Shown here piece by piece: positions 9,537-63,961 of a DNA stretch of 64,000 nucleotides. The position numbers and the translations under genes are program-made. Each line of letters starts with the position of its first letter. Position 1 is the stretch's first letter. Origin of the DNA: Tomocerus qinae (lineage: Eukaryota > Arthropoda > Collembola > Entomobryomorpha > Tomoceridae); NCBI GenBank assembly GCA_020055645.1, contig CM034546.1, positions 70,866,001 through 70,930,000 of the forward strand. Direction: 5' to 3'. Under the pieces are notes generated by a model. The model was not told the DNA's origin and ran no database searches. It worked only from the letters and a program-made list of their open reading frames with translations.

Positions 9537-9647
9537 TCTAAAATACAAACATAAAATTATTGTAATGCAAGACCTTACCGGGAAACTATAATATATATGG
9601 ATTTATAGTAGATGTAATTAATAGCTGTAAAACTGTTAATAATACCT

Positions 9648-11642: not shown

Positions 11643-12718
11643 TCACTCATAGGCAGGAGTAACTCTTCGAAATACCCAACTCTCCAAATCCGAACCGTTC
11701 TGGTACACTCCATGACTGATATCAATAGAGCCGTATAGCTTGTATCCTCTCGCTTTAACATTTGCAATGATTTGGCAAAGGAGCAATCTTCCGTAAACGG
11801 TTTCAGATCCATCTGGCCACCACGGGGTTCCTCTTAGCTTAACTTCTTTGGAGTCATGATAATCCCTTTCTTCTTGGATTCCCCACCGCCACTGACTGTT
11901 AACAGCCTCGATCACACAGGGCATTAATTCGGGAGCGCCAATCAACCGGATTCGATCTATATTTTAAAGTTCGTGGTCAACAACAATTACAAATTGTGAG
12001 ACACAATTGCATGGATGTTCTTCAGTTTTTAAAAGGTGTAAAATAAAATGTTTTCAAAAATACTGACAATATACAATCTAGCATTGAAATATAAAAATAC
12101 TCAAAAGTAAAATTATATAATGCCCTAAAAATCAAAAATTGGTTATAGATATAAAAAATAACTGTGACATTGTCTTTTTATTTTACTGAAACTGATTTTA
12201 TATATTATATTACAGTTTGAATGTTTGTTTTGGGAGACTGAAAATTTGAAAAATAAAAGTCATTGAAAAACTGAGCAAAATTTTACATTTTTTTAGCATA
12301 AGAGCTTACCTCTTCTGTTGAATGACATGGCGAAAATGTGTGTGTCAGGATCAGGAGCTTTATATTCGAAGAACATTGTATCCTTATCGTAGGGTTTCTT
12401 GCTTACATCTGCACCTTGTAAGAGATTCCAACCTTTGATAGCCATAACTTGCAAAATTGCAGCTAAAAGTCTTCGGGAGTTAACTGCTTGTGATTTGAGC
12501 CCTTGCCATGGGTGTCCCAAAAGTTTGAACTCATGAGCTCCATGATAATCTCTCTCGCCTTGGATTGTACCCCAACTCTTATTAATCGCTTTTCGAATTG
12601 AATGAGTCAATTCAGTCGGCAGAGCTATCAGCCGAATCCGGTCAGTCATATTGAACGATATGCAGCCAACTTGAATGTCATTATAACTGGCAGGGAGAAG
12701 CTGCGCATACGATGCCAT
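11643..12718 (-). CDS. Unnamed protein with two tandem copies of one domain
   Basis: Two exons, 12718-12310 and 11956-11643, join in phase 1 to give about 240 residues. Each exon encodes one copy of the same domain. Copy 1 runs DRIRLIALPTEL, then IQGERDYHGAHEFKLLGHPW, then SRRLLAAILQVMAIKGWNL and ADVSKKPYDKDTMFFE. Copy 2 runs DRIRLIGAPELM, IQEERDYHDSKEVKLRGTPW, GRLLLCQIIANVKARGYKL and IDISHGVYQNGSDLESWVF. The splice junction itself creates the DRIRL motif of copy 2, which supports the model. The family looks familiar from uncharacterised animal proteins, but I cannot name a function. A 5'UTR exon boundary at 12745 (CACAG acceptor) precedes the ATG. The stop at 11643 directly follows TPAYE; a GTGAGC just before it could be a donor to a further exon, so the C-terminus is uncertain. 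Confidence 0.72.
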
Positions 12719-12745
12719 TGTTAATCCCTACCCTCAATTTATCAC

Positions 12746-28213: not shown

Positions 28214-29249
28214 GTCTGATGTTGAACAACTGCAAATCCAAAAATTACAAAACTAAATTATCAATAATTCAATTATCCGAAAGAAAACGAGAACTCGACT
28301 ACTTGACTAGTGACTCTAGCTCTAGCTCTGGCTGTCTGTCTGGCTTGGCATAATGTGGCATGGCATTATAACAAATGTAAAGAAGAGTTTGCTTGGAGTT
28401 TAAATAGGACCTTTACCCTGGACTTAGCGCGTTTGGAAGGAATACTCTATGGTCATCAATCATCACGACATTATGCGAGATATGAGACAGGACCAAGACC
28501 AAAATAGAGAGTTGTACGTTGCACACATGCAATTTTGGTCCCCGTGTCGACCGTGTGCCCAATAAAGATTTTGAAAAATTCTGAAAGAGTTGAAGGCCCA
28601 CATTTTGTTCGACTCCCACTCTCACACAATTTTTGCGCACTAATTCGAGAGTGAAAGGTACCTCAATACGTACCTTTCACTCTCAAGAATGGAAATTATA
28701 GTGCGAGTGTTTTTTAAATATTAAAAATATTGGCCTAAGAAATGTGCCTCCGGGATGCTCGTGGCGAGTAACATTTTTTATCAGATATGCTTAATATTAA
28801 CTTCATCAACATTCGTCTCTTAGGAAACCAATTAGTCTCAACAATGCACTTATGGTTTTGTGTACGAATAAAATGCTCTTTATTCGTACACAAAACCAAA
28901 AGTACACAACTAATTAAGGCATTAAGGTGTTCCTTAAGTAAACACCAATTACCAATAATGTAAAATGTATTTGACTTTTCGGGTTGGCATTTGTTTCTTA
29001 TTACTACAAACAAATCAACACTGGGCGTATCAAACCATTAACAGTAAAAGCCAATTAGTAAAGTCGCAAATATTTGGCATGAAAATTAGAGCATCATATG
29101 CTAACATAATGATCATAGTTTTCAGCAGCTATGAATGTGGCTTTAATTATTTGTCAAATATGTTTTTACGTCGGTGACGATAATATATTCGGTTCTGAGT
29201 GAAAGTATCGACTGAAAGTAATTTGTATTACAACAGGTGTAAAATTAAT
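28214..29249. other. Intergenic with two strong hairpin sequences
   Basis: Lies between the divergent SMC6-like and channel genes. It contains a perfect 14-bp inverted repeat (28647-28684, arm GAGAGTGAAAGGTA, 10-base loop) and a perfect 20-bp inverted repeat (28853-28898, arm TGGTTTTGTGTACGAATAAA, 6-base loop). The overlapping open frames (28310-28507 and 28413-28640) show no known protein sequence. Confidence 0.55.
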
Positions 29250-30521
29250 ATGGCCAAAATGATTTTAATTATTATTGTATTTTTCTTAAATTTTACTTGG
29301 CCATATTTAGTTTACTGCAAGTCAAATTCGCATTATATAAATGAGCAACAAAAGGAGAATTTATTAAACCAACTACTAAATGAAAGTTTGTACAACAAAA
29401 ATATTCGTCCATCTGGAGAATCCCCTGAAGAAGCTACAATTGTGGAGGTTGCTTTGAGGATCTTGAATTTTGACAACATAGATGACAAAGATCTGAGTTA
29501 CGGAGTGGAATTAAGTGTAACACAAGCTTGGCATGACAGTCGACTAAATTATATCAACGATGCTGCAGTAGGATCTCCTTCACTCACAGGTGAATATTTA
29601 CAATTGAAAGAAATATCTAGAATCTGGACACCAGGAATTTATTTTGCCAACGAGAAATCCGACTGTAGGAACAAGGATGACAAAATCAACAACATTCTAC
29701 AAATACTTCCAAACGGAATGGTTTTCATGAATACCAAATCGTCGACGTCATTCAAGTGTCCAATGGATTTTCGGAAATTTCCTTTTGATGCACAAAAATG
29801 TAGCATTAAGCTCTGTTCCAACTGTTTATCCCAAGAAAAACTTCAACTACATTGGAGTCCTGGAAATATGCTAATAAATACGTCCATGTTCACAATTATT
29901 GGTGGCAATGGCCAATTTTCATTGACGAATTACTCCACGAGCTCTGAGGACGTCTCGTCGGACACAGGGATTTACAGATGTTTGATTGCTACATTTTCCT
30001 TCCGAAGGCAAATCCGCTACTACGTCATGAATTTCTTCTTTCCTTGCGTCATGATGACCTGGATATCTTGTCTTGCATTTTGGATCTCTGAGGATCTTGC
30101 AGATGCTCGTATCTCATTGGGTATCACAACCATATTGACCATGTCCACTCAGATCTACGGAATGACCCAGTCTGTTCCTCAAGTGTCTTACATAACTGCC
30201 TTACACAGTTTCACTGGAGTGTGTCTCACACACAGCTTTCTCGCACTTCTTGAATCCGTCTTTGTAATCTCCGTTCATAAGAAAACCAAACAAGAAACTT
30301 TAGCCATCGGAAATAATCACCCGGCTATTTCCCAAGAGCAAAAGGGAGATTATTTTTTAAATAATCCTAAAAACAGCCAGTCAATGGAGCCCAAATTTTT
30401 TCGCTTCAAACTATCACCGCTATTGTGTACAGCCAAGAAAATTGACTTTTATGCAAAAATTCTATTCCCCATTACTTTTCTACTGTATCTAACTTTCTAT
30501 TTCACTGCCTACGTTTTGTGA
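29250..30521 (+). CDS. Cys-loop ligand-gated ion channel subunit (chloride-type), intronless
   Basis: A single open exon of 423 codons plus stop encodes a pentameric Cys-loop receptor subunit. A signal peptide (MILIIIVFFLNFTWPYLVYC) precedes a ligand-binding domain. The defining Cys-loop CPMDFRKFPFDAQKC has exactly 13 residues between its cysteines, and a second pair CSNC follows. M1 is VMNFFFPCVMMTWISCLAFW. M2 is ARISLGITTILTMSTQIYG, close to the PARVSLGVTTLLTMTTQ of GABA, glycine and glutamate-gated chloride channels, with Asp in place of the Pro before Ala-Arg. M3 is SYITALHSFTGVCLTHSFLA and M4 is FYAKILFPITFLLYLTFY. The M3-M4 loop is short. The ATG at 29250 is the first in the frame. Such genes normally have several introns, so the intronless form suggests retroposition. 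AATAAA overlaps the stop codon. The agonist is not predictable. Confidence 0.9.
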   Translation: MAKMILIIIVFFLNFTWPYLVYCKSNSHYINEQQKENLLNQLLNESLYNKNIRPSGESPEEATIVEVALRILNFDNIDDKDLSYGVELSVTQAWHDSRLNYINDAAVGSPSLTGEYLQLKEISRIWTPGIYFANEKSDCRNKDDKINNILQILPNGMVFMNTKSSTSFKCPMDFRKFPFDAQKCSIKLCSNCLSQEKLQLHWSPGNMLINTSMFTIIGGNGQFSLTNYSTSSEDVSSDTGIYRCLIATFSFRRQIRYYVMNFFFPCVMMTWISCLAFWISEDLADARISLGITTILTMSTQIYGMTQSVPQVSYITALHSFTGVCLTHSFLALLESVFVISVHKKTKQETLAIGNNHPAISQEQKGDYFLNNPKNSQSMEPKFFRFKLSPLLCTAKKIDFYAKILFPITFLLYLTFYFTAYVL

Positions 30522-33509: not shown

Positions 33510-35761
33510 TTAATTCATTCGCATACTAAATGTCCTTCGGGCAAGTTTTGCACCATCTAGGTTTGTAATGGCAGTAGCAACTTCTGATTTGGCAAGAGCA
33601 GCGTCACGATTGAAAATGGCTTCATTAAATGTTCTTACATATTCCGTGGTGTAGTAGGGAGTCGAGTTAAATCCCATAACACTAGTTCGATGTTTAACTT
33701 GAATAGGTTTGTTGTAATAGTATTTCGGGTCACTGGCGTTGAGTGCCGCCAGACGTTTGTTAGCTTCAGCAACCTGAAAAGTTTGATGAGCCACTTCTAT
33801 TTCCAGTTGGAGCAGATTTCTAAATCGAACTTGTAATTCAGGACTTCCAACCGAAGAGCGTTTTGCAAACGATTCCAGGGTTTCATCGCGGATGACGTTG
33901 TTTTCATTTAAGACCTCTTGGGCAGAAAATCCTTTACCATTTTGTGATGTAAACTGATTCATTTTGCTATTGTATTCTTCCATGACATTTTCTATTGCGA
34001 CAACTAATTGTCCTTCAGTTACAGCATCATAGAAACTCTTTACGCGGGGGATTGTGTTTCTATTAAATGTCTCACCTAATGCTCTACAATAGGGAATATA
34101 CTCGTTGCCAGTAATAGGATTCCCTCCTCCGATTCTTTTCAACTCCAGATTATTTCTGTCGAAAAGAGAGTTTATGAATTCATTGGTTTTGGTAAAAAAT
34201 TCTCTTTTAAGGTTTGCAATGTCATCGTTCCGAATTGCATCACCGGGATACGGCAGAGCAAAAAGGGCAGTGTCATTGAAATTGTTCAAAATTGGTTCTC
34301 GCGAGTTTCTAATTTCTCTAACAGAAGTTGGAGGGTAGAATAATTCACGAAATAGATTTCTGGGACAATTTCCCGGAGTTGTAGTCTCCGTATAATATCC
34401 GTGCTTTAATTGACCATTTTCAGGGTGGACGTCTCTGTTTAAGATTATTAATGATTGAAAAGGCTTATCTCCGTCCCTATTTTCATCTCCAGCTTGAAGT
34501 GCAGTCTGCATGAACACCAAGAATGGTTGGATGTCTGCTTCGGTGATACGATCCAGTACGTTGTAGATCAGCACGGAAGACAATAAAGTTGACATAGCGA
34601 AAATTAATGAATTTTGATGAGTAGATGTCTCGTCATCAAAAGCTCCCTGGCAGTCCATAAGAATCACTGCAATCTCTTCGTTATTTCCATCTCTGATCAT
34701 TAAAGGCTGGGGCCAGATGTGGATACCTTTTGTTTCTGCGTCCCTCCCATTTCTCCAACTGAAGGCCGTTCTCCCTTGTGATGCATGGACCATTTCACGT
34801 ATCCACGCTGCCGATCCGTTAGACTTCAAGTATGATAAAATGCAGCTCATCATAAACGATTTTCCATGTCTCATTTTTCCATTAATTGATAACAAGATAA
34901 ATTTCCGGTCGCCAACTTCTCTCAGTATTCTCACCAGTCTTTCAATGTTTACGTGAACTCCATCATCGCCCATTGATTGCATTACAGATACGGAACTTAT
35001 TGTTCCTTGCTGGGCTCTACTTTCAGTATTTAGCGATGACTGGTCTATAGATAAAAATGTTAAAATATAGAAGTTATAATTAAACGACTTCATTTATCAA
35101 ATAATTAAAAACGCCAAGAAAGCACTTTCGATGAAACTATAATTGCATCATTTAAATTTAAAATTAAATCATCAGCAAGGTATAAAATTCATAGGGAGTT
35201 TATACATAAAATATTACTTAGCCCTCTATGGCTTAGGATTACCTCTATTTGATTTTAATGGTATAATGTAAATAAAATTCAAAGCTAGTTAAAATAATGT
35301 TGACAGATATTACGATAAAAGCCTTTCACTAAATAAGGTAATGATGTTATAAGTGTTAAGCAGAAGCCGGAGGTACTGATTACTGACCTTTTAATTCCAT
35401 GAGAATGTGTGCTGCAGCATTTTGTTCAATCCCACGACAACTAAGGGCATGGATTGTTTTGTCGTAGCATTCTTGTACCTTGTTTGGAAGAATATTCATA
35501 TAAAACTCGGTTGATTTATCCAGCTTGGTTGTCTTATTCTTCTGTTAATTAACACGCATTTTAAAATTTGTCGACTGATAATTATTTTAAATATTAAAAG
35601 ACAAAGGTACTTGTATTTATTATACTCACAATAGAATCCACTTCATTCCCGGTTAAAACATTAGCCGAAAACAATTGAAGGAGTAACGGCGCATTGAAGT
35701 CGGTTAATCCAGCCAGCTTAGCGGAATTACGTTGGATGAAATCTTTTGTCACATCGTCCAT
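33510..35761 (-). CDS. CARD-atlastin-like large GTPase
   Basis: Three exons, 35761-35630, 35541-35388 and 35044-33510, join in phases 0 and 1 to give about 606 residues. Residues 1-95 form a CARD-like helical domain: DFIQRNSAKLAGLTDFNAPL, LLQLFSANVLTGNEVDSI, then FYMNILPNKVQECYDKTIHA and AAAHILMELKG. From residue ~140 a dynamin-superfamily GTPase of the atlastin/GBP group follows. Its P-loop is GKMRHGKS (~151-158), and AFSWRNGRDAETKGIHIWP matches atlastin FSWRGG...ETTGIQIW. G3 is LMDCQGAFDDETS (atlastin LMDTQG) and the RD motif is ILNRDV. The C-terminal part is helical, with no membrane hairpin seen, unlike atlastin, which fuses ER membranes. The acquired CARD suggests use in death-fold or immune signalling, as with animal GBPs; that is inference. 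Confidence 0.78.
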
Positions 35762-48008: not shown

Positions 48009-48903
48009 ATGGTAAATAAAAAAGGCCTGGTTTTGTTCTTTACATTTATACAATTTTGTACTACATTTCGTCAAGAGTTCATATTATACAGTGAAAAGAG
48101 CTTTGGAGGTGATGCCTTAGTTATTCGGAGTAAGCGACCTGATTTGTTACCACTGTCCCCGGAAATTATTGGAAACGTTAAATCCTACTGCTATACTGGA
48201 CTGTAAGTAATTCCATTATATTATTAATCTGGTATTAATTGCTTGATCTCGTTTTCAAGACCCATGAAAAATGTATCCGATCAAAATATAATTTTTCTTG
48301 TACATTATTGTTAGTGGGAGAATCTGATCTACGCATATTGTTGATTTATCATGAGACAATTTGAAATGGTCTATGGTTTCAAATATAAATTTTGCCTCTG
48401 TCGTTTTTTCTAAATGTTTTTTTTTCCAAATATTTTTAACATTTAAGGTTTATTTAAACAGGTGGGTATTCTACGAAACCATTAACTATAAGGGCCAGAA
48501 GGTCATTAGTAATGGATTGAAATCAATGCGATGCATTGGGGATAACCAATACATGAATTCCTCTTTACCTGGATCAGCCCGTTATTTGGGACCCCTGGAA
48601 ACGAATTGTGTTTCAATTACTTTCTATGAAGAAGAAGAATATGCAGGGCAAGAACTTTTAATTGAAGGACCTGCTTATGGCCACATTCCATTCTCACCCC
48701 GCTCGTTTTTTGCTACTGGAAATTCCAACTGGACATTCTACAGTGGAGAAAACTTCAATGGGACGGCTACTTGTGTAATTCCATCTAACACAGACTACAA
48801 CTACTTCACCATGAAAGAATCTCTTTCTGGTGTTCGATCTGTAGTGAAAGGTTGCTACAATCCTTTTCAAAGATGTGTATCCATGAAAGACATGTCGGTG
48901 TAA
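48009..48903 (+). CDS. Secreted beta/gamma-crystallin-like protein
   Basis: Two exons, 48009-48202 and 48462-48903, join in phase 2 (CT|G) to give 211 residues. The N-terminus (GLVLFFTFIQFCTTF) is a signal peptide. The rest contains beta/gamma-crystallin Greek-key motifs with the aromatic-x-x-x-x-aromatic-x-Gly pattern: FILYSEKSFGGDALVI, WVFYETINYKGQKVI, ITFYEEEEYAGQELLI and WTFYSGENFNGTATC. A motif-closing SLSGVRSVVKGC follows. That is four motifs, i.e. two domains. Cysteines fit extracellular disulfides. Secreted invertebrate relatives act as structural, epithelial or Ca2+-binding proteins; I do not see clear Ca2+-binding N/D-N/D-x-x-S/T-S sites. The ATG at 48009 directly precedes the signal peptide. 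Confidence 0.82.
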
Positions 48904-50214: not shown

Positions 50215-53092
50215 TCAGTTGTAAGTATGAAAGTAGAAGTCCCTGATGAAGTGGATGTTGCAATAGGAGAATGTTTGCTTTAGACTTGTTGCAGCAAAAC
50301 CTTCAGGTGTCTGTACCGGTTCAGTGTTTTTCTTCATCATTTCTTTGGCAACCTTTTGGCATTGCATTATTTTATATCAATTATATACCTATGCAAGACT
50401 TATAAAACGAAGTATACGCATCATTTAGACAAAGCTTACCAAATTGAGCATCTTGCAAATATCCAATTCCTTTGAATACTTTCTAAATACTTCACACAGA
50501 ATTTGAATGAACCGCGTCCCTTTGTCTTTTTCGCGGAATGAATAATGCCCTAGAAAAAATTATGAATTTCAGATATACTGTTTTCAGAACCTTTGTTTAT
50601 ATGAGTGTGATGTATGTGTGACGTTATGATGTAGTAATTATATCATATATAGTTTTATTATTAACTGAGAAATAGAATTTGAAATAAATAATTAAGTCGG
50701 ATGTTAAATCCGACATAATTATTTATTATTTTTTAATTTTATCAAATCAAATCAAACGTTTTAAAATTAAACGAACTCTCAAGTGTAGAATAGCAGACAA
50801 GCATATCCGTCCAGGCTGAAACACTCGTTAGACGACCCTTTTAATCGGTAAATAAAGAAATTCAAAAAGAATCAATAATTGGGTAAGGAAAAGTATATTA
50901 TCTGTAATTCAAGACATGTAATAGATATTATGTAATTACCTGTTCTGGGGGTGCCTGCTTTGGGATTGAGTCAAAAGTAACAGTGGAGGCTCCCTTATCA
51001 GTTTCAATACCACTGAAAAAAATAAGTTTTTACATAACATCTTAACGCCTTAGGCAAACGGTTTATAGCATTATATTTTAATTAAGCATATATATTATTA
51101 ATAATTCCTTTAGAAAATATACATAAAGTCAAATATGATTATATCCACTAATTAATGGTGTATTTTTAAACTAAAGCTGAATATAACTATTTTAGATGCT
51201 AAAATTTTGTGGCCTGATTTACTTGTAGGGAAGGTTCGTTAAACGGTGCATAATATATTATTAAATAAATATAATATTTGTACGAACCGACAGTGGTGCA
51301 TGAAGAATATCTTTGGCTTCCCATTTAACTGAGGGCAGTTGACATTACTAAACTTTTCTAAAACTTGGTTAACACTGATCAGTTCCCTGTCACTTGTCAA
51401 GATTAAATCTCCATTTCCTTCATGAGCCATAATTGACACGATACAGCTGTCCAGTTGGGTTTCTTTGAATTTTTCTAAGAAATCGTCGATGACTTCAAAG
51501 AATTCCTATCGGGAGATATTAAAATTTTTTACTGCTGAATGAATATTGTGACACGTATTCTATGGACAATACAATACATGTGAGTACCTGTACTGTACTC
51601 ACATTCGTATGATTCTTCCTAATTCTTCCCTTACCACACAAAAATAATTAATAAAATTCAAATTTTCGGCTTAAATTGTGAAAATTCGGTTTTTATTAAA
51701 TGTTTATTACCCGCTGCTAATCAAAATTTTGGTTATTCACTTTACAAATATCCTAGACATTTTGCATATGTCCGATCTGTACAAAATTCCTGTAACATAA
51801 CATAACATATCCACTTATTGTGTTGCGGTCGGGTAAATGTTTTGTTGGTCAGCAGATGATTTGAAAAAGGGCGTTACAAGAAGAGTCAAACGATGATTCA
51901 AAATTCAATGATTAGTTCAACGAGATACAACACGCATGTAATAAAAATCAAAATTACTTCTACTGACAAATTTTCCATGGAATAGACCTCGTAGTCCAAA
52001 TCTATCAATAAGCGGGTGAGTTGTTCACTATCGTATTTAGCTTCATCTCTAAACGAGTATGTACCAATGTCAAATTGGATCATGTTAATAATCAACGCGT
52101 ATCCTCTTGGGGTAGATTCGATCTGATATTTCTGTAAATACAACAAACCAGTTGAACCCCCATTGATTATTCCTTCTATCAATTAATCAATCGAGTTTGT
52201 CTCTATATTCTGGACATGGAACTAAATAAGCAATTAAACGATCACGTTCGAAATTATAAGGAATTATATTACATGCAAGGTAGTTTCAATTTCTCCAGAA
52301 GAAAATCATTTACGTTCTTTCCTTACTGTCAGAATTCCAGATGCATACAAATCCTCATAGGGATTTGATTGAGAAAGGGAAGGACGTTTAAATTTTAATA
52401 TTTCCTTTTTCAGTGATGGCTGAGTTGGTGAAACGGAAGTAGAATGTTCACAGGAAGATATGTCAGATGCTTGTTTAAGCGACAAGTTTCTAGCGTCCGG
52501 GTTTTCAATGGAGGAGCTTGTGGTGCAACAAGACGAAGAACTGATATCGAGAAATTCAAGCCATTTCTTTTCCAAATCATCAGCCAAAGTATTTTGTTCT
52601 GTTTGTCTTAAAGCATGAATTATATGGGAAAGAGTAGACGGTCCGCTTTTGACCACTTTCATGTAGAAATTGGTACTTCTAGTGTACTTTACTTTCTCAG
52701 CTAACTAAATGGAAGAAAAAAACATTTTTAGATTTAAAACGAAGCATTTTTCTGGTTTTGACTTGATCCGGATTCACGTTTTGAAAAATAGATACGTATT
52801 AATTTTTGGAGATTGTTGTTAATTTAATTAAATGTACTTAAGTATGAAATTATAAGTAAATTTCACTCACAATTTTATCTCTGCCAGCAGCAGACAAACA
52901 TTTCGCTTCCAGTAAACAGTCTAGAAAGTTTTCATCTACCAAAGTATTCCCTGATAGATACATGAGTTGGTCTCTAATAAATTCACCAAATTTCTCATGT
53001 ATGTTGTTGATGTAAGACCAGTTTGTTTTTTCAAATAATGTTGAAGGACCACCCTTGCTCTCGTGTGAAGACAGCGGAATTTGTAAACGTTT
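50215..53092 (-). CDS. CARD-containing initiator-type caspase
   Basis: Exons read on the minus strand: 53092-52871, 52704-52327, 52131-51958, 51505-51288, 51012-50940, 50815-50777, 50549-50440 and 50352-50215. The CARD is HEKFGEFIRDQLMYLS...LVDENFLDCLLEAKCL, then FYMKVVKSGPSTLSHIIHAL, split by a phase-0 intron. A Ser-rich linker follows. The caspase fold starts YQIESTPRGYALIINMIQFD, with FRDEAKYDSEQLTRLL. The catalytic His is in SIMAHEGNGDLIL. The catalytic Cys is in HHCRG (usually QACRG), with the CRG triplet built across a splice junction. DTDK/TFDS-type Asp sites could be cleaved between subunits. The small subunit has DMLVCYSTLE, HYSFREKDKGTRFIQILCEV and a C-terminal IRDFYF. Exons 5 and 6 do not join in phase under simple GT-AG rules, so that junction may hold an indel or an unseen microexon. 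The start codon lies in an upstream exon not found. Dronc/caspase-9-like role inferred. Confidence 0.8.
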
Positions 53093-54118
53093 CTAATATT
53101 CCACAGTCAATTAAATTCAGAAAAAAGGTTATTTCTAACGGAATGAATGTTAATATCCACATAATTCTCAATTTCTTATTCAAGTACATTCAATCTAAAA
53201 CAACATTGTACACAACATGTACGTCCAATTATCTATATTGCAATATCAGAATTGTGCCAAGTTGATCTCCATCTAAATTAGTTTCACTAAAGTTGCAGAG
53301 TTCCAAATACTATTACAAAAAATTCCTTTTTTACAAATTTTCACTAATTCCGCAAGACAACAAAATGGGAATACAGCAATACATGGAACAATCGGCCGAA
53401 TTGCAGCTCAATGCCTAACACGAAATCCCGTAGTTGACATTACATTTACAACTCCTCAACGGGATATCCATTCAAGCATTTGCATTGTGAAATGTAAAAT
53501 TTCAAAAATGTAAAGGAAAGAAAATGACCTTAATCCAACGTACAAACTAAAATTGAGGGACGCTTTTTTCACTGCCAAACGAAAAGTGGATTGAGGTCTT
53601 TTGCATCCTTAAGGGACGAGAATGTATTTCAGATACATAGATTTTTATATTAATTTCAATTGACGTCGTCACGGTTTCTAATTTGGTGGGCCAGAGGGAG
53701 AGATTTTGCATTGATGGAGAGTCAAGAAATATTCTTCGCTATAAGTCTAAAATAATAAAAATAAATAATAAGTCTTCGCTTTAGTACGACCTAGGGTCAA
53801 CTTTTGTTTTTAAATTGAAATGTAAGTATTATTGGAAACTTACTCCTGCCACCTACCATTATCACTTGACTCAGGCTCAGGGTTTACAGAACTGCATTAC
53901 TGAACTACCACCAATGTACATACTGTCATTAATTGACAATGGAACATTTTGAGACCAAGTTAATTTTAATTGGAAATGTAGCGCCGATCGGTCATTTAGA
54001 AAATTGAATATTGTTGATTGTAATTTTTTTGGTACCTTAAGAGAGCTCTAACTTTTATATGGAACTTTTCTTCGAATTATCCCATTATTCCTGAGTCCCA
54101 AATCCTGCTATTCGACAT

Positions 54119-54196
54119 TCGAGTACCTTCGAATAAATTCGAGTACCTCCGAATAAATTCGAGTACCTTCGAATAAATTCGAGTAGTTTCGAAGTG
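54119..54196. repeat. 20-bp tandem repeat, about four units
   Basis: The unit TTCGAGTACCTTCGAATAAA repeats nearly perfectly three times, with a fourth diverged unit (TTCGAGTAGTTTCGAAGTG). Confidence 0.85.
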
Positions 54197-54218
54197 CAGT
54201 CATGATAAAATGGCTTGT

Positions 54219-54367
54219 AAAAACTTGCTCGCAGTGTTAGGATATTCTTTCTTGGTATCCCCACTGAATTTTTATTCTGGCTGCTGCCCTGGCTATATGG
54301 ATCATTTTTATGGATGAATAAAATCAGTAATTACAACTTGTTGATCAGAGTCATCAATGAATTTGTT
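54219..54367 (-). pseudogene. Partial duplicate of the CARD exon of the NB-ARC gene
   Basis: About 150 bases match 55639-55795 in the same orientation, including TGAATTTTTATTCTGGCTGC, TGGCTATATGGATCAT and ACAACTTGTTGATCA. The copied part covers the end of CARD exon 1, its splice donor (GTAAGT in the gene, GTAATT here) and the start of intron 1. The rest of the CARD exon is absent, so it is a truncated relic from a local duplication. Confidence 0.75.
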
Positions 54368-54708
54368 ACTTTATAGCAGCCATCATACTACAAAGATTAA
54401 GCCTGAAACAGCTTAATATACCCAAAGCCTTTGTTATATTTGATGCCATCTCTCATAATTTAATCATTACTATTGGCTAGTTGACAGCCAATGACAATGA
54501 CTAAATTATGACCACCTCTGGTGGATTGGAGTTTGGGAACAGGCGCCAATTCGTGGCTCAATAGTTTGACAGTATAGGCATTCAAATTTGCCTTCAGATA
54601 GGTAAATGGACTTCGTGTGTCTTATAGCAGAAAAAAGCCTTTTTCTGCTATGAATAGTCTATGAGCAGCCATGATAATTGGGTTTGTTACTTTGTAATGT
54701 TAAGCAGA

Positions 54709-55888
54709 CTATTTATTATTATTACGTACCTCATCGTTATTCGCTGCTAGTTGAAAATTTGGTATAAGTGATTTTAAAGTGCTTGAAAAATAGCTTTTAG
54801 CGTCTAAGGTTGAAAGCTGTTGCAATTTAATTTCCCTGAATTTGGAAAAGATGTTGTTTATTGGCCTTACTTTCGACGTTATGAGTAAATAGTGATCTTC
54901 CCATAATTGGTATTGCCGAACCAGCAGATTCAAAAATTGATCTTCATAGTTGGTAATATCGTCGATAATTAGTAAACACGGTCGATTAGATAAGGCTGAG
55001 AAGATTTCCCAAACAAATATTTGCAATTTTTCTTCATCGTGAATATAGTCTTCTAAATCTTGTCCAAAATTATTAACAAGTCGTTGAAAAGGGAAGTATA
55101 CCGAAGCGTTCTCTTCTTTTAGCCAAATACAATTTCCTTCATAATTTAAATAAAATGTTTTTGCAAATACTTTTGCCACTTCAGATTTACCGATTCCAGA
55201 ACTACCACTAATCAAAACACTCTTTTCACTCTTGTCGAGTAAAAACCATTTTTCCAAATTATTCAGTTGGTCTTTTCGACCTACGAAATATATCGACGGA
55301 GGTTTGATTTCAAACCATCGTTGAGGGGTCGCGCTTTTCTCTTTCGTAATATAGTTTTTTGTTAGAATACTTGTAAATATTCCATTGCCAGTCTCTTTAA
55401 AACAGCGCAAAAGTATAGCTTCGTCTGAGTTAATCTTTTCATTTGATAGCAATCTTATGTATAGTTCAGCAGCGATCTCATATGAGCGTCCTTTAGAAAT
55501 CTAAATAATTAAAAAAAACTATTTATTCCAACATCATAGCAAAAATAAGCAAATAAAACTAAAATAAGCTTGACAATTTATTTTTTATCCGAGTCAATAA
55601 AAACAGCGAATGTTTTGTCTTAAAACGCAAAAAAAGCCAAAAACTTGCTCGCAATGCCCGAAAATTAGGATATTATTTCTTGGTATATCCACTGAATTTT
55701 TATTCTGGCTGCTGCCTTGGCTATATGGATCATTGTTATGAATAAATAAAATCAGTACTTACAACTTGTTGATCAAAGTCATCAATGAATTTGTTCAATA
55801 CCAATACGTCTATTAAATCACTTAAATTTTTGGTATTTTCTGCAAGGTAATGTAAATTACGCTTAACATTTTGCAAAATTTGATCCAT
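54709..55888 (-). CDS. Minimal CARD-NB-ARC (CED-4/Apaf-like) protein 1
   Basis: Two exons, 55888-55763 and 55500-54709, joined in phase 0, give about 305 residues. Residues 1-95 are CARD-like: MDQILQNVKRNLHYLAENTK, LIDVLVLNKFIDDFDQQV, then YEIAAELYIRLLSNE and AILLRCFKETGNGIFTSIL. The NB-ARC ATPase follows: FVGRKDQLNNLEKWF, a P-loop ISGSSGIGKSEVA (~139-151), a kinase-2 motif CLLIIDDITNYEDQ, an RNBS-B-like HYLLITSKVRP and a LQQLSTLDAKSYF segment. It ends before the GxP/ARC2 region and has no WD40 or LRR repeats. A possible donor (GTACGT) precedes the stop at 54709, but AATAAA overlaps that stop and I found no further exon, so I end the gene there. Such proteins oligomerise and recruit CARD-caspases. 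One lies 1.6 kb downstream on the same strand. Confidence 0.75.
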
Positions 55889-56259
55889 TTTGAAAACATT
55901 TACAATTATTATTCCACACACTTCTAGATAATAGTTTTAATCAATTAAAGTTGAAACTTGCGCGGGACAAATTATCGTTGTCATTTATTATACAGCCACA
56001 CGCACCCGTTCCCAATTACACACTATATAACAGAGTAGAGTAATATCTATCTGTATTATGGTTCTATGTAAACTGGTCCTAGTAAACTGGTATCTTAGGT
56101 ATAAAGTAAACTGGTCTTGGTCAATTACCAACTGGTCCTCCCGCGTTAGTAAACTGGTCTTCGTCAATTACCAACTGGTCCTATGCGAAAAGTAAACTGG
56201 TCTTAGTCAATTACTAACTGGTCCTCCCGCATTAGTAAACTGGTCTTGCTAAATACCAA

Positions 56260-56687
56260 CTGGTCCTCAGTGTTGTGCAGTGGTTAAAACCACTAGTGGT
56301 CATAATGGTCATAATGGTCAAAATGGCCCGGTCAAAAAAAATTAAAAAGTGGTCAAAATGGTCAAAATGGACAAAATGCCTGTTTGGGGTTAATTGAGAC
56401 CCCAAGGTAGCTTTTACTGCAACAGTAAACAACAAATACAACTTTCTAAAGATTGCAGTTAAAAATGATTAGAGAGTGTCATTCTGTAGTCTGATGTTAG
56501 TAGAATAGTGTTTCATTGGTTTTAGGCCATATTTCATTATCTAAATATTTTAAATTTCATTTGCTAGCCTAAGTAACTGTATACTGATATTTTGACCATT
56601 TTAGCCATTTTGACCATTTTGACCATTTTGACCAGTGGCCCGGTCAAAATGCAAAAAAGTGGTCAACAGTACAACACTGCTGGTCCT
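56260..56687. mobile_element. hAT-type MITE with perfect 8-bp target-site duplication
   Basis: The element runs 56268-56679. It begins CAGTGTTGTGCAGTGG and ends with the complement of CAGTGTTGTACTGTTG. CTGGTCCT occurs immediately on both sides (56260-56267 and 56680-56687). The interior near both ends is a simple ATGGTCAAA repeat. CAGTG ends and an 8-bp duplication are hallmarks of hAT transposons. It is inserted inside the left arm of the surrounding element, so it is younger. Confidence 0.85.
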
Positions 56688-56861
56688 ATGCCGAAAGTAA
56701 ACTGGTTTTGGTCAAACACTATGATTGTTTGATGAGTTGAGGTATATGGTATGGTATATAGAACTAATTTATTCAATCTCAACCTTATAGTACTACTCAA
56801 TACCTAAGTTATGAGCTCTGACATCAAATTTAGTCTTCTGCAGAACTTTAAGTAGAACACT

Positions 56862-57002
56862 ATGGCTGTGACATTTGTAAAATCGCAAACAGGAAAAGAT
56901 AAGTTAGTGCAGCAAGGCTACGCTTATACATTTACAGCCACTACTAAAGATGGAAGGACCACACGGAGATGTGAAAATAGGAAAAATTGCAATACAGATT
57001 AA
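56862..57002 (+). pseudogene. FLYWCH zinc-finger remnant
   Basis: A 46-codon frame reads FVKSQTGKDKLVQQGYAYTF then a Cys-containing RRCENRKNCN before a stop. This matches the start of a FLYWCH finger (F.....GK..L...GY.Y...W.C....C), with the Trp changed and the distal His-x-His missing. Such fingers accompany Mutator-like transposases. Truncated and probably non-functional. Confidence 0.6.
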
Positions 57003-58189
57003 AAGTACCATCGAGACTAATACCATCCCCATTCAACGCTATTGTAGGGCATTGGCATACCTTACTTTACAGAAAAGAAGAATGAGTCAAAAGAAAAAAG
57101 TTATTGTATAGATTTGACTAACTTACTAATTTAATGGTTATAAATTTAATTTAATTGTAACTTACGTAATCGTAAATTGTTGATTGATACTTGATGAAAA
57201 AAATTCCTAATAAATATGCTGTGTGTCTCGATATGTGGTAGTTCATTTATTTCACGTTCACTTATTTCAGAAAGACCAGTTACTAATGCGGGAGGACCAG
57301 TTGGTAATTGACTAAGACCAGTTTACTTTTGGCATAGGACCAGTTGGTATTTAGCAAGACCAGTTTACGTTTGATCCTAAAGACCAGTTTACTTGGACGA
57401 GTTTACGTGACACCCTGTATTATACCGCCATAATAAGTTATAATGTGGTCAAAATGGTCTTGGCCCATTGTACTACCTTATTCACTTAAATTTTGTGAAT
57501 AGACCTCGAAAACAAAGAGATTTAAAGATAAGAAGACTATGCAAAGGATGTTTTAGCTCTACCGATCGCACTAAGGTATATGCTTACCTTTGAGTTACCT
57601 TTGGTTGATGAGAATAAACTAAACATTGTAAATTGACACAAATAATTAAAACACAAAACACTCAAATATCAAATAATCAAAATTTATTTTTAAATCAATA
57701 TTCTTAAAAATTATAAAGCTCGCACAAAAAGGGCGCAAGTTTGTTGAAACAATCTTCATTTATAAGAAAATATAAATTTTTGTGTGAATTTGCTTAAGCA
57801 ATTAGAATTCATACAAAATCGTCGTTTTTTGTGCGACTTTGTGGCAACAATTCGCTTTGATAATTTTTAATTATTTAAATGGTTTTGTTCACTGGACAAA
57901 ACCATTTCGTCCACTAAACATAACCATTTTGTCCGGATGAAATTAATTTTATCCGGATAAATTCAATTTTTCCAGTGGACAAAAACCATTTTATCCAATT
58001 TTTCCACACCTCCCTATACGGATACCGTAACCCTGGGTAAACATAACTGGAGCATAAGACGTTTACATAGTGTGCAAAATTACATTAAAATACAATCCAA
58101 GGAGTGGTAGAATTGCCAAGGTTTCTGGTACCTCGAACTCAAGTTATATTGCTTACAGACATTAAATAATCTCATATGACCCAGTTACA

Positions 58190-58352
58190 AGCACGTATTT
58201 AGTAGGGGGCGGGGAGGTGCCCAGCACCCTCCATAAATCTGAGAAAAAGAGAATTTTTTTCTCATAAATGGCCAAAAATTGCAAAATTTTTTCTTATTTT
58301 TATTATAATTTGTACTTTGGCCCCCTTGAACAAATTTCCAGATACGTGCCTG
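58190..58352. mobile_element. Dispersed repeat copy B (poly-G/poly-C edge MITE)
   Basis: Same orientation as the copy at 27540-27718. It has AGCACGTATTTAGTAGGGGG at the left, AAATCTGAGAAAAAGAGAAT inside, and GGCCCCCTTGAACAAATT...ACGTGCCTG at the right. Non-coding. Confidence 0.8.
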
Positions 58353-58841
58353 AGTTATATTTGCGCATCTCAGTATTTATTGAGTTGGACAAGTTGTATC
58401 TCTGTATTAATAATATTAGTTTGTAAATTATAATATTCATTTATTGTGCTAACTAAAGACGACAACTAAATAACAGGAAGTGATAAGTAATGGCAGAAGA
58501 ATGGCCCCAATAACCTTTATATATAAATAACTTATCAGCTTATCACATAATAAATAACCAGCAAACCCAAATATGAAGCCTTTAGCAAACGATTAAACTA
58601 TATGAATAATAATATTATACCAGATACATACATACATAGATGCGGATGCGACATCATCCGACATGAAGAACTAATTTTATGTATGGTAATAATTTTTACA
58701 TTTCTATTCCATCATTATCATTACTTTATTTATGCATGATGTTGAAGTAATTGAGTGCCGCTAAAATTTAAATTTTCCATACACTTAAAAATTAAACTTT
58801 ACGTTTTATTTTACAAGTGTAGTAGATATCTATCAAAAAAT

Positions 58842-60022
58842 ATGCAGAAGTTCTATGCTAGGAAAATAAAATCTAATTTACGTCGTTTGTGTCTTGATAC
58901 CATCGACACAATAGTCTTTATAGTTAATCTATTTTCAAACGACGTACTTAGTGAAGAGGAATTTGAAAGAATCGTAAGAGTTTAAAACATAACTATCTTA
59001 TTTTATTTTTATAGTCTCTTCTTTCTGAAACCATTTATATTAAAGACTAATTACTGGCCTTTCAGCGACATATTACTGATCCATATAAAGCCCACCTTGA
59101 AATATATACCTTAATTATGAAGAAAGAAGATAACGCATTTCAATTACTTTTGGACTGTTTAGCTAAAAGTGGCAACGAGGAATTAAAAAAGATTTTAATT
59201 GGACATGATTGGAAAGAAGATAGTGTTATTTCGGAAAAAGTGTGGTTCGAAGTCCTGCCACACAATCCTTATTTTGTTGGAAGAGAAAAGGATTTGAAAA
59301 ATATCGATGACTACTGGAAAGAAAATTTTGATCGGAAGACGCTTCCACTTTTAGTGATTACTGGCGAAGAAGGTGTTGGAAAAAGTGATCTTGCGCGAAA
59401 ATATGTTCATCAATTTCACCAAAAAGTCAGCGGCCATTGCCTCTGGATAGATGCTCAGTCAGGACAAGCTATTGTAAATTCACTGCAAAATTTAGCCACC
59501 GAACTGACAACTATGAACTTTGACAGAAACGTTTCCGAATATTATATCATCAATAAAATATGCAATCACTTTAAAGGGCATGAATGCATTTTTGTTTTTG
59601 ATGGATTGGGAGACTACAGCGAAAAACATTTCAGACTTTTTTTTCAAAACTGTCAAACAGTGGGTCCATCAACAGCCAAACCGTTCATTTTACTAACCTC
59701 AAGAAACGATTCTGTGCACACAGCTTTTGAGTTACATGCAAAACAGGTACCAATAGGTAAATTCGACCATGATCAAAATTGCCAGTTTTTCAACGAGGTA
59801 TTCCAACCCTTTCATGACAATGTAGACGAAGAATTAATGAATCAGCTTGCCAATGCTACTAAAGGTCACCCGGCAGCAATGGTGAGAGTAGCGGCGTATA
59901 TATTAGACACATATAACCGAATGATTAATCCAAAATCTCTGGTAGACGCGATAAACCTTACATTGCAACATATTCAAATTGGAAGGTTGATCTTGTTTGC
60001 TACAAATGAATATAACGAGTAG
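58842..60022 (+). CDS. Minimal CARD-NB-ARC (CED-4/Apaf-like) protein 2
   Basis: Two exons, 58842-58973 and 59066-60022, joined in phase 0, give 362 residues. The CARD is SNLRRLCLDTIDTIVFIVNL, SNDVLSEEEFERI, then KAHLEIYTLIMKKEDNAFQL and CLAKSGNEELKKILIG. NB-ARC motifs in order are FVGREKDLKNID, the P-loop ITGEEGVGKSDLA (~142-154), kinase-2 CIFVFDGLGD, RNBS-B FILLTSRND and a GxP-type KGHPAAMVRVAAYIL. It stops soon after, at a plain TAG, with no WD40 or LRR region, so it is longer than protein 1 by the GxP segment but still minimal, like CED-4 shortened. The ATG at 58842 is the closest in frame to the CARD. The gene is divergent from CARD-NB-ARC 1 across 3 kb of transposon sequence. Role in caspase recruitment is inferred from the family and the neighbouring CARD-caspase. 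Confidence 0.8.
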
Positions 60023-61194
60023 CGACGTTTGGGGCTGTAGTATTATTTGTTAAAATGGTGTCGGATGGTGGAACATGTCACATTACTTTTAGGCCATTTT
60101 TCACTTTCAAGGTATAATGTTAATGTATAATATCAAGGTGGTACATACATGTAAATGCTTTACTTTCAGAACAATTTTCATTATATTCATCACATTATAT
60201 ATAAACTGATACTGGTACTAATTTTTCTATTGTGTGTGAAATAAATATGTAATAAGTTATGGAACATGAAATTTCAACTCTGGTCGAATTAAAATGCTTT
60301 GAGACTTAAAAGTAAATAATAATATCAGTAGTGTATAAGGTATTATAATAATATGCTTTTATTGTACTTTTGGTTTGGTAATTAGTAATGATACAAAATT
60401 TGGCAGTATATCTTTTAAAATTAATGGTAATAGAACATTATTCTTATATATATCGTATATTGCTTAGAATACGTCCATAGTATTATAAACTTGTTCCTTT
60501 ATAAATAAAGTTATTTCAGTCATTATATATTACTTTTGAAATTTTAACAATATAAGTAATCCCTTTTGTCTGCACCTTGCTTTATATATTTCTGGGCGAC
60601 CTTTGCTCTTTCAATTTGTACTTCAAAAAGCTATCTGTAGTTTTGAAAAAGAATTACAAATTATTATGCTAACGTCAATTTCGCTACTATAGTTTACTTG
60701 TGTTTAACTTTTCAATAAGTATATGTATTAACAAAAACTAAATAGAGTAAAAATAAAATATATACGTAATATTTCGTGAATATTTCTACTTCAATGATAT
60801 TGCATGATAATTTTTATAATCGTAATAATGTACAACTCTTGAGGATATTTAAGAAATAAGATGGTGATGCAAAACATATGGATGTTTGGTTGCCTTTGAA
60901 AGATAATAATATAATATAGTATATTAAAAGCATTCACCACCTTTCATTGATAAAATGTACTGAGGACTAGAATAGAAATGGCGTTAATATTTTTAACTAA
61001 TTGTAAATCATTCAATTACTAAATTCTTTGAATTTTTAATCGTTATAACGATTAAAAAAAGTTTAGACAAGCTTCCAATATTATTATTATATATTATAAC
61101 TTATATCTTTTTATGCCAATTAAAATTCATGTAACATTCACCAGTCCCCTAAACTAGTGATGTACAATTAGTATATAGCTTCCCCTTGTCTATT
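60023..61194. other. Intergenic, no supported gene
   Basis: AT-rich, between the convergent 3' ends of CARD-NB-ARC 2 and the CARD protein at 61.2 kb. A perfect AATCGTTATAACGATT palindrome occurs near 61038-61053. Nothing else was recognised. Confidence 0.5.
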
Positions 61195-62344
61195 TTATAC
61201 AACCACATTTGTTTCATCCAAATCTGTATCACCGATACGGAGGTCATTTACATTAACACTCATATTTTTCCCCTTCAATGACAACTTTCTCAAACCCTGG
61301 ACGTTAACCAGATCATTTATTAGAACATTGATTTCACTTTTATCTTGCATGAACTTAACCAAGTCTAAGCCAATCTCCCGTACTTCCATTTTCCTTGGTG
61401 GCATTTCCTTACGATTGGCAGCGATTAACGATTCAATCAAAAGACGAACCTTGCGGAAATATATACATTCCATTGAATGCATAAGACAGTTCAGACTGAT
61501 TTCAACTGTACTTCCTTCATCGCAAGTAATTTTAAGCACTTTTACAGTCTCCCCAATGCTGCTACTTAAATCTGCGAGTTCTACCTCATCTCCATTCTTA
61601 ATATATTCGCAGTTGTACAATTCCAAAGACTGGCATTTAAAATGACGGCCTTCTTCAAGTTTTACTTTGGATGCCGTTATTTTAATTGTATATCCTTCAA
61701 TTTTTTTAGCCAAATGTTCATTACCAGTTTTCTTGAAAATTTCAACAACTTGCGACAACTTTGGTTCCAATTCCTTTTTCAACAGCTCCCGAAATAGTTC
61801 CGAAGCCACGCCATTCTCTTTCCAATCGTTCTCCTAAAAAGTTGTAACCCAAAATGAACAACACCAATAATACAATTATACAATGAACTAGGAATAATTA
61901 TAAATTCGAAATAAGGTTCATGAAACTTCAACGGCCATATTTGAAATACTGAATTTTAATAAATTCGCAATTACTTTTTAAACCACGTCAAACTGATTTC
62001 TGGACCACAAAAATAATCTTCTATCACTACTACCTAAGTATTATTATTATATTGTGGAACTGGAAATTAACAGACACAAAAAATATATGCCCGTTTAAAC
62101 GCTAAATTAGTGATGGAATTGTAAATTGTTATGGATGTTACAAATAAATTAGTAGTTTTGATTTTATTACTATAACTTTAGCATAGGAAAGTTCATTTGT
62201 CGATATACTATTAAAACTTACAATCTTTGTTACTTCTGATAGTTCGAAAATTTCTTCTTGAAGGAAATGATTCATAACTGGTTTGAAATTAGTAATTTTC
62301 TCCGAAAAGAATACTAAATTCTTTTTAATAATATCACTGGCCAT
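61195..62344 (-). CDS. CARD protein with unrecognised C-terminal region
   Basis: Two exons, 62344-62222 and 61833-61195, joined in phase 0, give about 253 residues. The first ~95 residues look like a CARD: MASDIIKKNLVFFSEKITNF, MNHFLQEEIFELSEVTKI, then ASELFRELLKKELEPKLSQV and VEIFKKTGNEHLAKKIEG. The last segment closely parallels LLDCLAKSGNEELKKIL of the neighbouring NB-ARC protein. The remaining ~155 residues have alternating hydrophobic strands and an LRR-like stretch (VQGLRKLSLKGKNMSVNVND), but no family I can name. Without an ATPase or protease domain it may be an adaptor or a decoy that binds CARD partners; this is inference. The ATG at 62344 opens the CARD exon directly. Confidence 0.68.
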
Positions 62345-62881: not shown

Positions 62882-63961
62882 TTAATAGTGTATTTTACAA
62901 TATCTTAATGAAACGGTTTGAATGTATTTTATGGAGTCTAAATCTACGTTAAGCTTAGTGCAATGGGCATTTTTGCAATCAACAATCAATGTTTTCATCC
63001 GATTCGTAATAAATGTACTGCCATAAATATCTGACCTTGACTCAGATTGATTTTGGATTCTTACATTTTTTAATTCCAAGTGTTCTAAATCAACTGGAAT
63101 GCCATTTACATAGCAGTTTTCTAGTGTAAGCTTTTTTAAGGCAAAACCAATTTTTGAACCAATTATTGGAAGTTTTTCTTTCATTTTAAAAACTAGTGAC
63201 ATGTCTGTTTCATTTACTTCAAACAGTAAATCTCGATTAAAATTGACATTGACATAGTTTATGCCCAAAATATCAAATAAACTAGTGTCTTTCTTGTAGA
63301 AAAGAGTGTAGTACTCTATCTCCTGTGGAGTTGCATTAGCAGACACCAAATTCATTTTAACATGACGTAATTTAGACAAATGTGCTTTTTTGTCATAGGT
63401 CCCAATTATTTCGATGTTATCAAAAACAAGTTTGCTTAAACTAACGCATTTGGTAAGTGTATGAAATATTTCTGGGCGACCAAGTTTATTTTTGTTGATA
63501 ACAATGCAGTTTAGCTTACTAAAGTAATCTTGCATTTTCATCTTCAAAATAAACGCATCGGTTGTGTATAGTGGAAGTTTTATGACAGAATGAATGTTCT
63601 CCGTATCTGCAACAAAAATTGTAACCATTAATATGGGTTTACACAAATGAGTTAGCATTTAGTTATCATTCGCTACGCCAAATTATTAATCAATAAAATA
63701 TTTTTGTAGCTATGACGTATAAAAGCCCAAATTCAGAATTAAAATTGCAAAAAGGCAATTGACAAATTTTCTGCCGGTAAAAATGCATCGTCATTAATAC
63801 CTGTACTTTCTTTTAACGAGACCCTTCCAAACCCTGTAATGAGAGCTCCTATCGTGTTTTCATCCTTTTCATTGGATTGGGTGGTTAATGCTTTTTTGTG
63901 TCTAATAGTTATTGAAGCTGAGAATTTCTTTGGAGATATCCAACTGTGTCCACGAAGAATC
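62882..63961 (-). CDS. LRR-like protein, 5' end outside window
   Basis: Two exons are visible: 63961-63801 and 63606-62882, which join in phase 1. The AG before 63961 shows that at least one more exon lies beyond the right edge. The downstream exon has irregular leucine-rich-like units with the L..L.L.N pattern: LSKLVFDNIEI, LSKLRHVKMNL, LKKLTLENCYV, LEHLELKNVRI, MKTLIVDCKN and IQTVSLRYCKI. No signal peptide or membrane segment is visible in this part. The first exon (HSWISPKKFSASITIRHKKA) is not recognised. Given the CARD genes next door, it could be the LRR end of an NLR-like or CARD-LRR protein, but no CARD or NB-ARC is visible in the window part, so that stays a guess. Confidence 0.55.

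What the first reader, a model, noticed from the sequence alone, without database searches (positions are those of the whole stretch)
50215..62344. Cluster of CARD-caspase, two CARD-NB-ARC and CARD-only genes: a compact death-fold signalling locus
Within 12 kb lie an initiator-type caspase with a CARD, two CED-4/Apaf-like CARD-NB-ARC genes and a further CARD gene. Effector protease and its likely activators being next to each other is unusual in animals, where such genes are normally scattered. The caspase keeps its catalytic His and Cys, and both NB-ARC proteins keep the P-loop and kinase-2 motifs. This could be a self-contained cell-death or immune module, functionally comparable to operon-like NLR-protease pairs elsewhere.
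Basis: partly seen in the sequence, partly recalled or inferred. Interest (0 to 1): 0.88.

Follow-up and report, generated by a model that had tools for sequence, protein, structure and literature searches.

The report
CARD genes beside truncated NB-ARC receptors
A stretch of an invertebrate genome holds five nearby genes that share one split 'CARD' death-signalling domain, joined to a protease, an atlastin-type GTPase, two cut-down receptor-like ATPases and a tail of unknown kind; it is real, but it is a piece of a much larger receptor-like gene family rather than a self-contained module.

Summary
In detail: a CARD-caspase, two CARD-NB-ARC genes and a further CARD gene lie at the stated coordinates. 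The reading as a compact, operon-like module does not hold.

(1) A fifth gene, CARD fused to an atlastin/GBP-type GTPase, lies at 33.5-35.8 kb. A sixth, a longer CARD-NB-ARC gene, lies just beyond the window; its apparent last exon is 62.9-63.6 kb.
(2) The CARDs examined at C1:70.66-70.93 Mb share one phase-0 intron at one codon (8 of 8); the CARD at 88.5 Mb lacks it.
(3) Both window NB-ARC genes end before the stretch, expected to be a winged helix, that longer relatives have.
(4) The caspase keeps His and Cys, but alone of six compared has HE for HG and HHC for QxC; two exons show dN/dS about 0.14.
(5) Related sequences lie at 57 places, query included, and caspase relatives elsewhere.

Best reading: a birth-and-death patch of a CARD/NB-ARC repertoire. 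CARD-CARD signalling is inferred, not shown. The CARD-atlastin gene and the truncated receptors are the interesting parts.

The parts
33510..35044 (-). Atlastin/GBP-type GTPase exon of the CARD-GTPase gene (outside the given coordinates)
   Evidence: Pfam GBP 6.5e-33; PDB atlastin-1 4.8e-45; frame open to stop; acceptor read
35388..35541 (-). CARD second-half exon of the CARD-GTPase gene
   Evidence: found by a profile that did not contain it, E 0.068; splice sites read; isolated CARD 24.4 bits against cut-off 23.9
35630..35761 (-). CARD first-half exon of the CARD-GTPase gene, starts with ATG, ends phase 0 before GTGAGT
   Evidence: profile without it E 0.0087
50215..50352 (-). Caspase last exon with stop
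   Evidence: matching exon in relative L028
50440..50549 (-). Caspase p10 exon (HYSFREKDKGTRFIQ)
50777..50837 (-). Caspase p10 exon (WTDMLVCYSTLE); acceptor AAAAG, supported by relative L028
50940..51012 (-). Caspase linker exon (GIETDKGASTVTFDS)
51288..51505 (-). Caspase p20 exon with catalytic His (AHEG) and Cys (HHCR)
51958..52131 (-). Caspase p20 exon with PRGYALIIN
52327..52704 (-). Caspase CARD second half and linker
   Evidence: 71% identical relative at C1:76.77 Mb
52871..53026 (-). Caspase CARD first half (modelled part; 5' limit and start codon not found)
54730..55500 (-). NB1: CARD second half and NB-ARC (P-loop GSSGIGKS, kinase-2 CLLIIDDI), ends before a GLPL motif; if not spliced at 54730 it reads on to the stop at 54709
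55763..55888 (-). NB1: CARD first half from ATG
56068..57406 (.). Foldback element (inverted arms within 56068-56267 and 57280-57406) between the head-to-head NB-ARC genes
58842..58973 (+). NB2: CARD first half from ATG
59066..60022 (+). NB2: CARD second half and NB-ARC (GEEGVGKS, CIFVFDGL, KGHPAAM), stop 46 residues after KGHPAAM
61195..61833 (-). CARD second half and a tail of about 165 residues without a Pfam match to a repeat family
   Evidence: fold model too poor to use
62222..62344 (-). CARD first half of the CARD-tail gene, from ATG
62882..63607 (-). Probable last exon of a longer CARD-NB-ARC gene whose body lies beyond the window end (frames C1:70930325-70932709 and 70932745-70932918, minus)
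   Evidence: the joining splices are inferred from position and open frames, not proven

Best explanation
The locus is one patch of a large, changing CARD/NB-ARC gene family of an invertebrate, probably of immune or cell-death function. A CARD encoded by two exons (phase-0 intron near its middle) has been duplicated and joined to different effectors: a caspase, an atlastin/GBP-type GTPase, NB-ARC ATPases and an unknown tail. The most likely way of working, inferred and not shown: long CARD-NB-ARC proteins (such as the one just outside the window) and the CARD-GTPase act as inputs that oligomerise on nucleotide and present their CARDs; CARD-caspases of the genome are recruited through CARD-CARD contacts; the two window NB-ARC proteins, which end before a winged helix and have no sensor, act as CARD oligomers without a ligand switch or, more likely, as dampers that occupy CARD sites. 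The window caspase, with two changed active-site neighbours, is either a protease of changed specificity or a constrained decoy.
For: Shared phase-0 intron at one aligned codon in 8 of 8 CARDs examined at C1:70.66-70.93 Mb under four alignment settings, absent from the CARD at 88.5 Mb, and read again in a second CARD-GTPase gene at 13.9 Mb. Leave-one-out CARD tests. CARD-GTPase. Longer relatives continue past the point where the window NB-ARC genes end. 57 related places, query included; 25 of 60 matches start inside the CARD half-exon. Caspase exons under constraint. Lancelet BbeApaf-J (two CARDs, NB-ARC, C-terminal region without defined domain) and zebrafish Gbp4 (GTPase with CARD in an inflammasome) show that such parts can signal (PMC11747288 and PMC4932187, passages).
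Against: No expression, protein or interaction data. CARD net charges are all near zero (-2 to 0), so no simple charge pairing. The shared intron could be older than the cluster. NB1 and NB2 are only 21-24% identical, so 'damper' is a guess. No start codon found for the caspase. The protein search gave no relative of NB2 and one of the caspase, 27% identical.
Confidence: 0.6

Rival explanations
1. Self-contained death module: the caspase and its own activators NB1 and NB2 are kept together because they work together, like NLR-protease pairs elsewhere.
For: Four CARD genes in 12 kb including protease and ATPases; open frames; caspase exons under constraint.
Against: Mixed strands; foldback element between the NB-ARC genes; relatives of the caspase's CARD exon at C1:76.76, C1:76.77 Mb and C4:11.9 Mb have no listed NB-ARC match within 100 kb, though that list is incomplete; NB1 and NB2 end early.
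Confidence: 0.12
2. Neighbourhood of decaying family members: NB1, NB2 and the CARD-tail gene are truncated relics of longer receptors, and the caspase is losing activity.
For: NB1 and NB2 end early; active-site neighbours changed in the window caspase only, of six compared; exon with PRGYALIIN has dN/dS about 0.52; a 131-base piece including the end of NB1 exon 1 is duplicated 1.4 kb away; some relatives elsewhere carry stops; no start codon found for the caspase.
Against: Open frames of 257 and 318 codons kept at 21-24% mutual identity; caspase dN/dS about 0.14 over the His/Cys exon and one p10 exon against L028, 0.21 against L029; GT-AG at all modelled introns, although two caspase donors are GTTCGT and two acceptors AAAAG.
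Confidence: 0.25

Closest known systems
CED-4 / Apaf-1 / Dark apoptosome proteins
   Same: N-terminal CARD followed by NB-ARC with P-loop and kinase-2
   Different: Frames end before a winged helix, no WD40 found; NB-ARC profile has plant NLRs as best PDB matches
Lancelet BbeApaf-J (PMC11747288, passages read)
   Same: CARD-NB-ARC without a defined C-terminal domain
   Different: Two CARDs there, one here; it has an undefined C-terminal region, NB2 stops soon after NB-ARC; DNA binding not tested here
Placozoan Apaf-1 paralogues (PMC6321704, passages read)
   Same: Several in clusters of NB-ARC genes, some models without WD40 or CARD; two neighbouring genes with CARD and caspase-like domain
   Different: In the passages that I saw, no caspase beside NB-ARC genes and no CARD-GTPase
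Zebrafish Gbp3/Gbp4 (PMC4932187, abstract and passages read)
   Same: GBP-family GTPase with a CARD
   Different: CARD is C-terminal there, N-terminal here; the GTPase here is nearer to atlastin than to GBP1/2/5
Silkworm BmAtlastin-n (named in the review PMC9005921, passages read)
   Same: Atlastin family member with a reported antiviral role in an invertebrate
   Different: The two mentions of CARD in that review's text concern fish GBP4 and the NLRC4 name, not this protein

Membership tests
CED-4/Apaf-1 family (NB1, NB2) | N-terminal CARD | tested here: met
   leave-one-out profile E 3.9e-7 (NB1) and 3.7e-7 (NB2); Pfam CARD for NB2 only
CED-4/Apaf-1 family (NB1, NB2) | NB-ARC with P-loop and kinase-2 | tested here: met
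   Pfam NB-ARC 7.6e-6 and 3.4e-11
CED-4/Apaf-1 family (NB1, NB2) | winged-helix domain after NB-ARC | tested here: not met
   frames end too early: FxSxx_TPR model matched to position 141 (NB1) and 198 (NB2) against 333-341 in L002-L004, all matches below that model's own cut-off. Downstream same-strand frames of 25 aa or more gave no Pfam match. Caveats: Pfam names no winged helix in the longer relatives either, so that this stretch is a winged helix is recalled; a far exon is not excluded
Apaf-1 | C-terminal WD40 repeats | tested here: not met
   no match
Initiator caspase | CARD prodomain and p20/p10 caspase fold | tested here: met
   Peptidase_C14 1.3e-37, a caspase-2 construct best in PDB, CARD
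Initiator caspase | catalytic His and Cys | tested here: met
   MAHEG and HHCRG align to LSHGV and QACRG of JF1cpCasp2
Initiator caspase | QACXG motif and Gly after the catalytic His | tested here: not met
   HHCRG and HE; 5 of 5 other caspases picked from this genome have HG and Q at -2
Initiator caspase | proteolytic activity | not testable with these tools
   needs an enzyme assay
Atlastin/GBP GTPases (CARD-GTPase) | GBP/atlastin GTPase and middle domain | tested here: met
   (atlastin-1 aligned over query 123-517)
Atlastin | membrane-anchoring hairpin | tested here: inconclusive
   no hydrophobic tail seen by eye in the last exon; no predictor run
Operon-like NLR-protease module | co-oriented genes | tested here: not met
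   strands mixed
Operon-like NLR-protease module | gene order conserved in relatives | not tested
   no related genome was available
NLR (NB-ARC/NACHT with LRR) | leucine-rich repeats | tested here: inconclusive
   tails look LRR-like by eye; no Pfam LRR

The most novel reading that the evidence does not exclude
An invertebrate has a CARD signalling network in which atlastin-type GTPases, cut-down NB-ARC ATPases and caspases share one CARD cassette: an independent counterpart of the vertebrate GBP-inflammasome link, with the locus in the window holding input, switchless scaffold and effector side by side and the window caspase as an active-site-altered member.
Probability: 0.2. Interest if true: 0.85.

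Novelty: new variant of a known kind. Interest (0 to 1): 0.58.

Why it matters
Large NB-ARC receptor sets are known above all from plants; among animals expansions are described for placozoans (PMC6321704) and lancelets (PMC11747288) and, as I recall, corals. A genome with 57 places of one CARD/NB-ARC family in an incomplete search, CARD-caspases and CARD-atlastin genes, linked by one intron position, would let one test how receptors, GTPases and proteases become wired together by sharing one adaptor domain. The CARD-atlastin architecture, seen twice here, bears on whether GBP-type GTPases and caspases were linked outside vertebrates.

Tried and rejected
Relatives from elsewhere: the protein search gave none for NB2, one distant protein with caspase and dsRNA-binding domains for the caspase (P0001) and one GBP protein for the GTPase (P0002); viral contigs gave none for the NB-ARC pair or the caspase exon.

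Fold models: the CARD-tail model (pLDDT 36) was not used; the NB2 model (pLDDT 49) has a plant NLR resistosome as best Foldseek match (E 1.4e-5, TM 0.24), too weak to count.

CARD charge complementarity: no signal. Rejected: 'CARD-only' (tail present), 'Apaf-like' in the strict sense, and the caspase as a long-dead pseudogene (but constraint is not uniform, the PRGYALIIN exon gives about 0.52).

Not obtained: genome-wide searches with PF00931 and with NB2, because the server did not answer. One search scored 57 of 352 candidates, so its counts are lower bounds and its distribution (60 of 60 matches on C1) may be biased.

Literature: among the papers listed by ten searches (others listed per search, often of more) I saw no title on a caspase beside NB-ARC genes or on a CARD-atlastin. 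Only listings and the passages named were seen, and most subscription papers are not held, so this is no proof of absence.
Full report
What is there. The window is position 70,866,001-70,930,000 of contig C1 (140 Mb) of an unnamed 334-Mb genome in 115 contigs. I read the exons by eye with splice sites and checked their positions. On the minus strand, 53.1 to 50.2 kb, is a caspase in eight modelled exons; on the minus strand, 55.9-54.7 kb, a CARD-NB-ARC gene (NB1); on the plus strand, 58.8-60.0 kb, a second one (NB2); on the minus strand, 62.3-61.2 kb, a CARD gene with a tail. Pfam gives the caspase domain E 1.3e-37, NB-ARC 7.6e-6 (NB1) and 3.4e-11 (NB2); CARD passes Pfam's cut-off only for NB2, is below it for the caspase and the tail gene, and is not listed for NB1.

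Are the CARDs real? A profile of the four N-termini finds CARDs in the PDB, best E 1.3e-5; below E 0.05 the only other names are two designed proteins, and unrelated proteins begin at 0.077. With the fifth CARD added the best E is 2.6e-5. Each of five CARDs, left out in turn, ranks first of 2552 (E 3.7e-9 to 1.2e-6; best decoy 1.4e-3).

A fifth gene. The profile of the four, built without it, pointed weakly (E 0.0087 and 0.068) to two neighbouring frames at 35.8-35.4 kb. They are a CARD in two exons, spliced in frame to the 33.5-35.0 kb GTPase exon; the isolated CARD scores 24.4 bits against the Pfam cut-off of 23.9, and 20.3 within the whole protein. Among solved structures the GTPase is nearest to atlastin-1 (4.8e-45) and far from GBP1/2/5 (3.5e-6 or weaker).

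A sixth gene. In 264 kb around the window the CARD half-profiles find the five and one more: a CARD first-half frame at C1:70,932,745-70,932,918 (E 1.7e-9) and a 795-codon frame (70,930,325-70,932,709; second half E 1.4e-4) with NB-ARC (Pfam 5.3e-10; Pfam CARD not listed for this frame alone) and a longer continuation. Its probable last exon is the 62.9-63.6 kb frame in the window; that join is inferred.

One CARD cassette. In all five window CARDs and in L002, L003 and L004 a GT-AG phase-0 intron falls at the same aligned column (8 of 8; four MAFFT settings; splice sites). The CARD of L001 at C1:88.5 Mb, found with Pfam in the same genome, runs through that point without an intron. I read upstream of four other GTPase loci (about 3-4 kb each): one, at C1:13.9 Mb, has a CARD in front (first half E 6e-8; second half only E 0.77, recognised by eye), split phase 0 at the same place; in the other three no CARD was found. 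The intron shows common descent, not how recent it is.

Where the NB-ARC genes end. NB2 stops 46 residues after a GLPL-like motif (KGHPAAM), NB1 ends before it. The longer relatives L004, L003 and L002 match the bacterial FxSxx_TPR model over positions 22-337, 14-333 and 15-341, NB1 only 7-141 and NB2 2-198; all are far below that model's own cut-off. In NB-ARC proteins a winged helix is expected in the missing stretch (recalled; Pfam does not name it even in the longer relatives). Same-strand frames of at least 25 aa downstream of both genes give no Pfam match. NB2 has FDG where NB1 has IDD in kinase-2. NB1 and NB2 are 21-24% identical; NB2 is 26% identical to L004 over 137 residues; L004 and L003 are 48% identical over 542. 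In the PDB the five-member NB-ARC profile has plant Roq1 and other plant NLRs as best matches; no Apaf-1 or CED-4 among the 60 shown of 160.

The caspase. The exon with the second CARD half has relatives at C1:76.77 Mb (71% identical), C1:76.76 Mb (54%) and C4:11.9 Mb (48% over 42 residues). These three and the two best-scoring caspase matches of the genome (five picked of 46 exon matches) have His-Gly and Gln at -2 of Cys; the window copy alone has His-Glu and His. The junctions that I was unsure of, before GRL..WTDML and before VAKEMM, are matched in L028. Over the His/Cys exon and one p10 exon dN/dS is 0.092/0.667 against L028 and 0.165/0.795 against L029; in the PRGYALIIN exon it is 0.181/0.345 against L028. 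So the protein is constrained, unevenly, while its active-site surroundings have changed. That these positions belong to the oxyanion hole and the S1 pocket is recalled knowledge of caspases.

The wider family. With the L004 frame as query the genome gives 60 matches at 57 separate places, the query included (57 of 352 candidates scored), 60 of 60 on C1; 25 of 60 start at query residue 16 or before, that is within the CARD half-exon. One of the places (C1:70,678,613) matches only behind the NB-ARC part. Caspase exons give 46 matches, GBP-type GTPases 76. The window is thus a part of a large repertoire.

How it may work. Shown: domain content, splice pattern in the DNA, shared CARD, early ends, changed active-site neighbours, selection on caspase exons. 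Inferred: CARD-CARD recruitment; long NB-ARC proteins and GTPase as inputs; truncated NB-ARC proteins as switchless scaffolds or dampers; the window caspase as altered protease or decoy. Precedents seen in passages: lancelet BbeApaf-J (PMC11747288), zebrafish Gbp4 with a CARD, acting through Asc and caspase (PMC4932187), placozoan NB-ARC clusters and neighbouring CARD-caspases (PMC6321704), BmAtlastin-n (PMC9005921), hybrid death-domain receptors of amphioxus (PMC2575513).

Verdict.

Noticed in passing
window 6752-9602, minus: Mutator-like transposase and YqaJ-type exonuclease in one frame (6752-8425), with further frames up to 9602 by eye; a probable mobile element.
   Followed up: no
window 48355-48900, plus: Beta/gamma-crystallin-like frame between the CARD-GTPase gene and the caspase (Pfam Crystall 24.4 bits, just under the cut-off of 25).
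   Followed up: no
window 54237-54367 and 55665-55795: 131-base direct duplicate, 93% identical, carrying the end of NB1 exon 1.
   Followed up: partly
L003 1662-1856 and 1972-2217, minus: Two CARD first-half frames in tandem before one CARD-NB-ARC exon, both with GTAAGT donors: possible alternative first exons.
   Followed up: partly
G000 contig C1: 60 of 60 listed NB-ARC family matches lie on C1, which is 42% of the assembly; the list is incomplete, so this may be a bias.
   Followed up: no
window 29199-30518, plus: Cys-loop receptor frame with ligand-binding domain and the first part of the membrane domain in one exon.
   Followed up: no
window 11646-11963 and 12296-12727, minus: Two frames that look alike by eye (RIRLI..ERDYH..), without a Pfam match: a small tandem family.
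   Followed up: no
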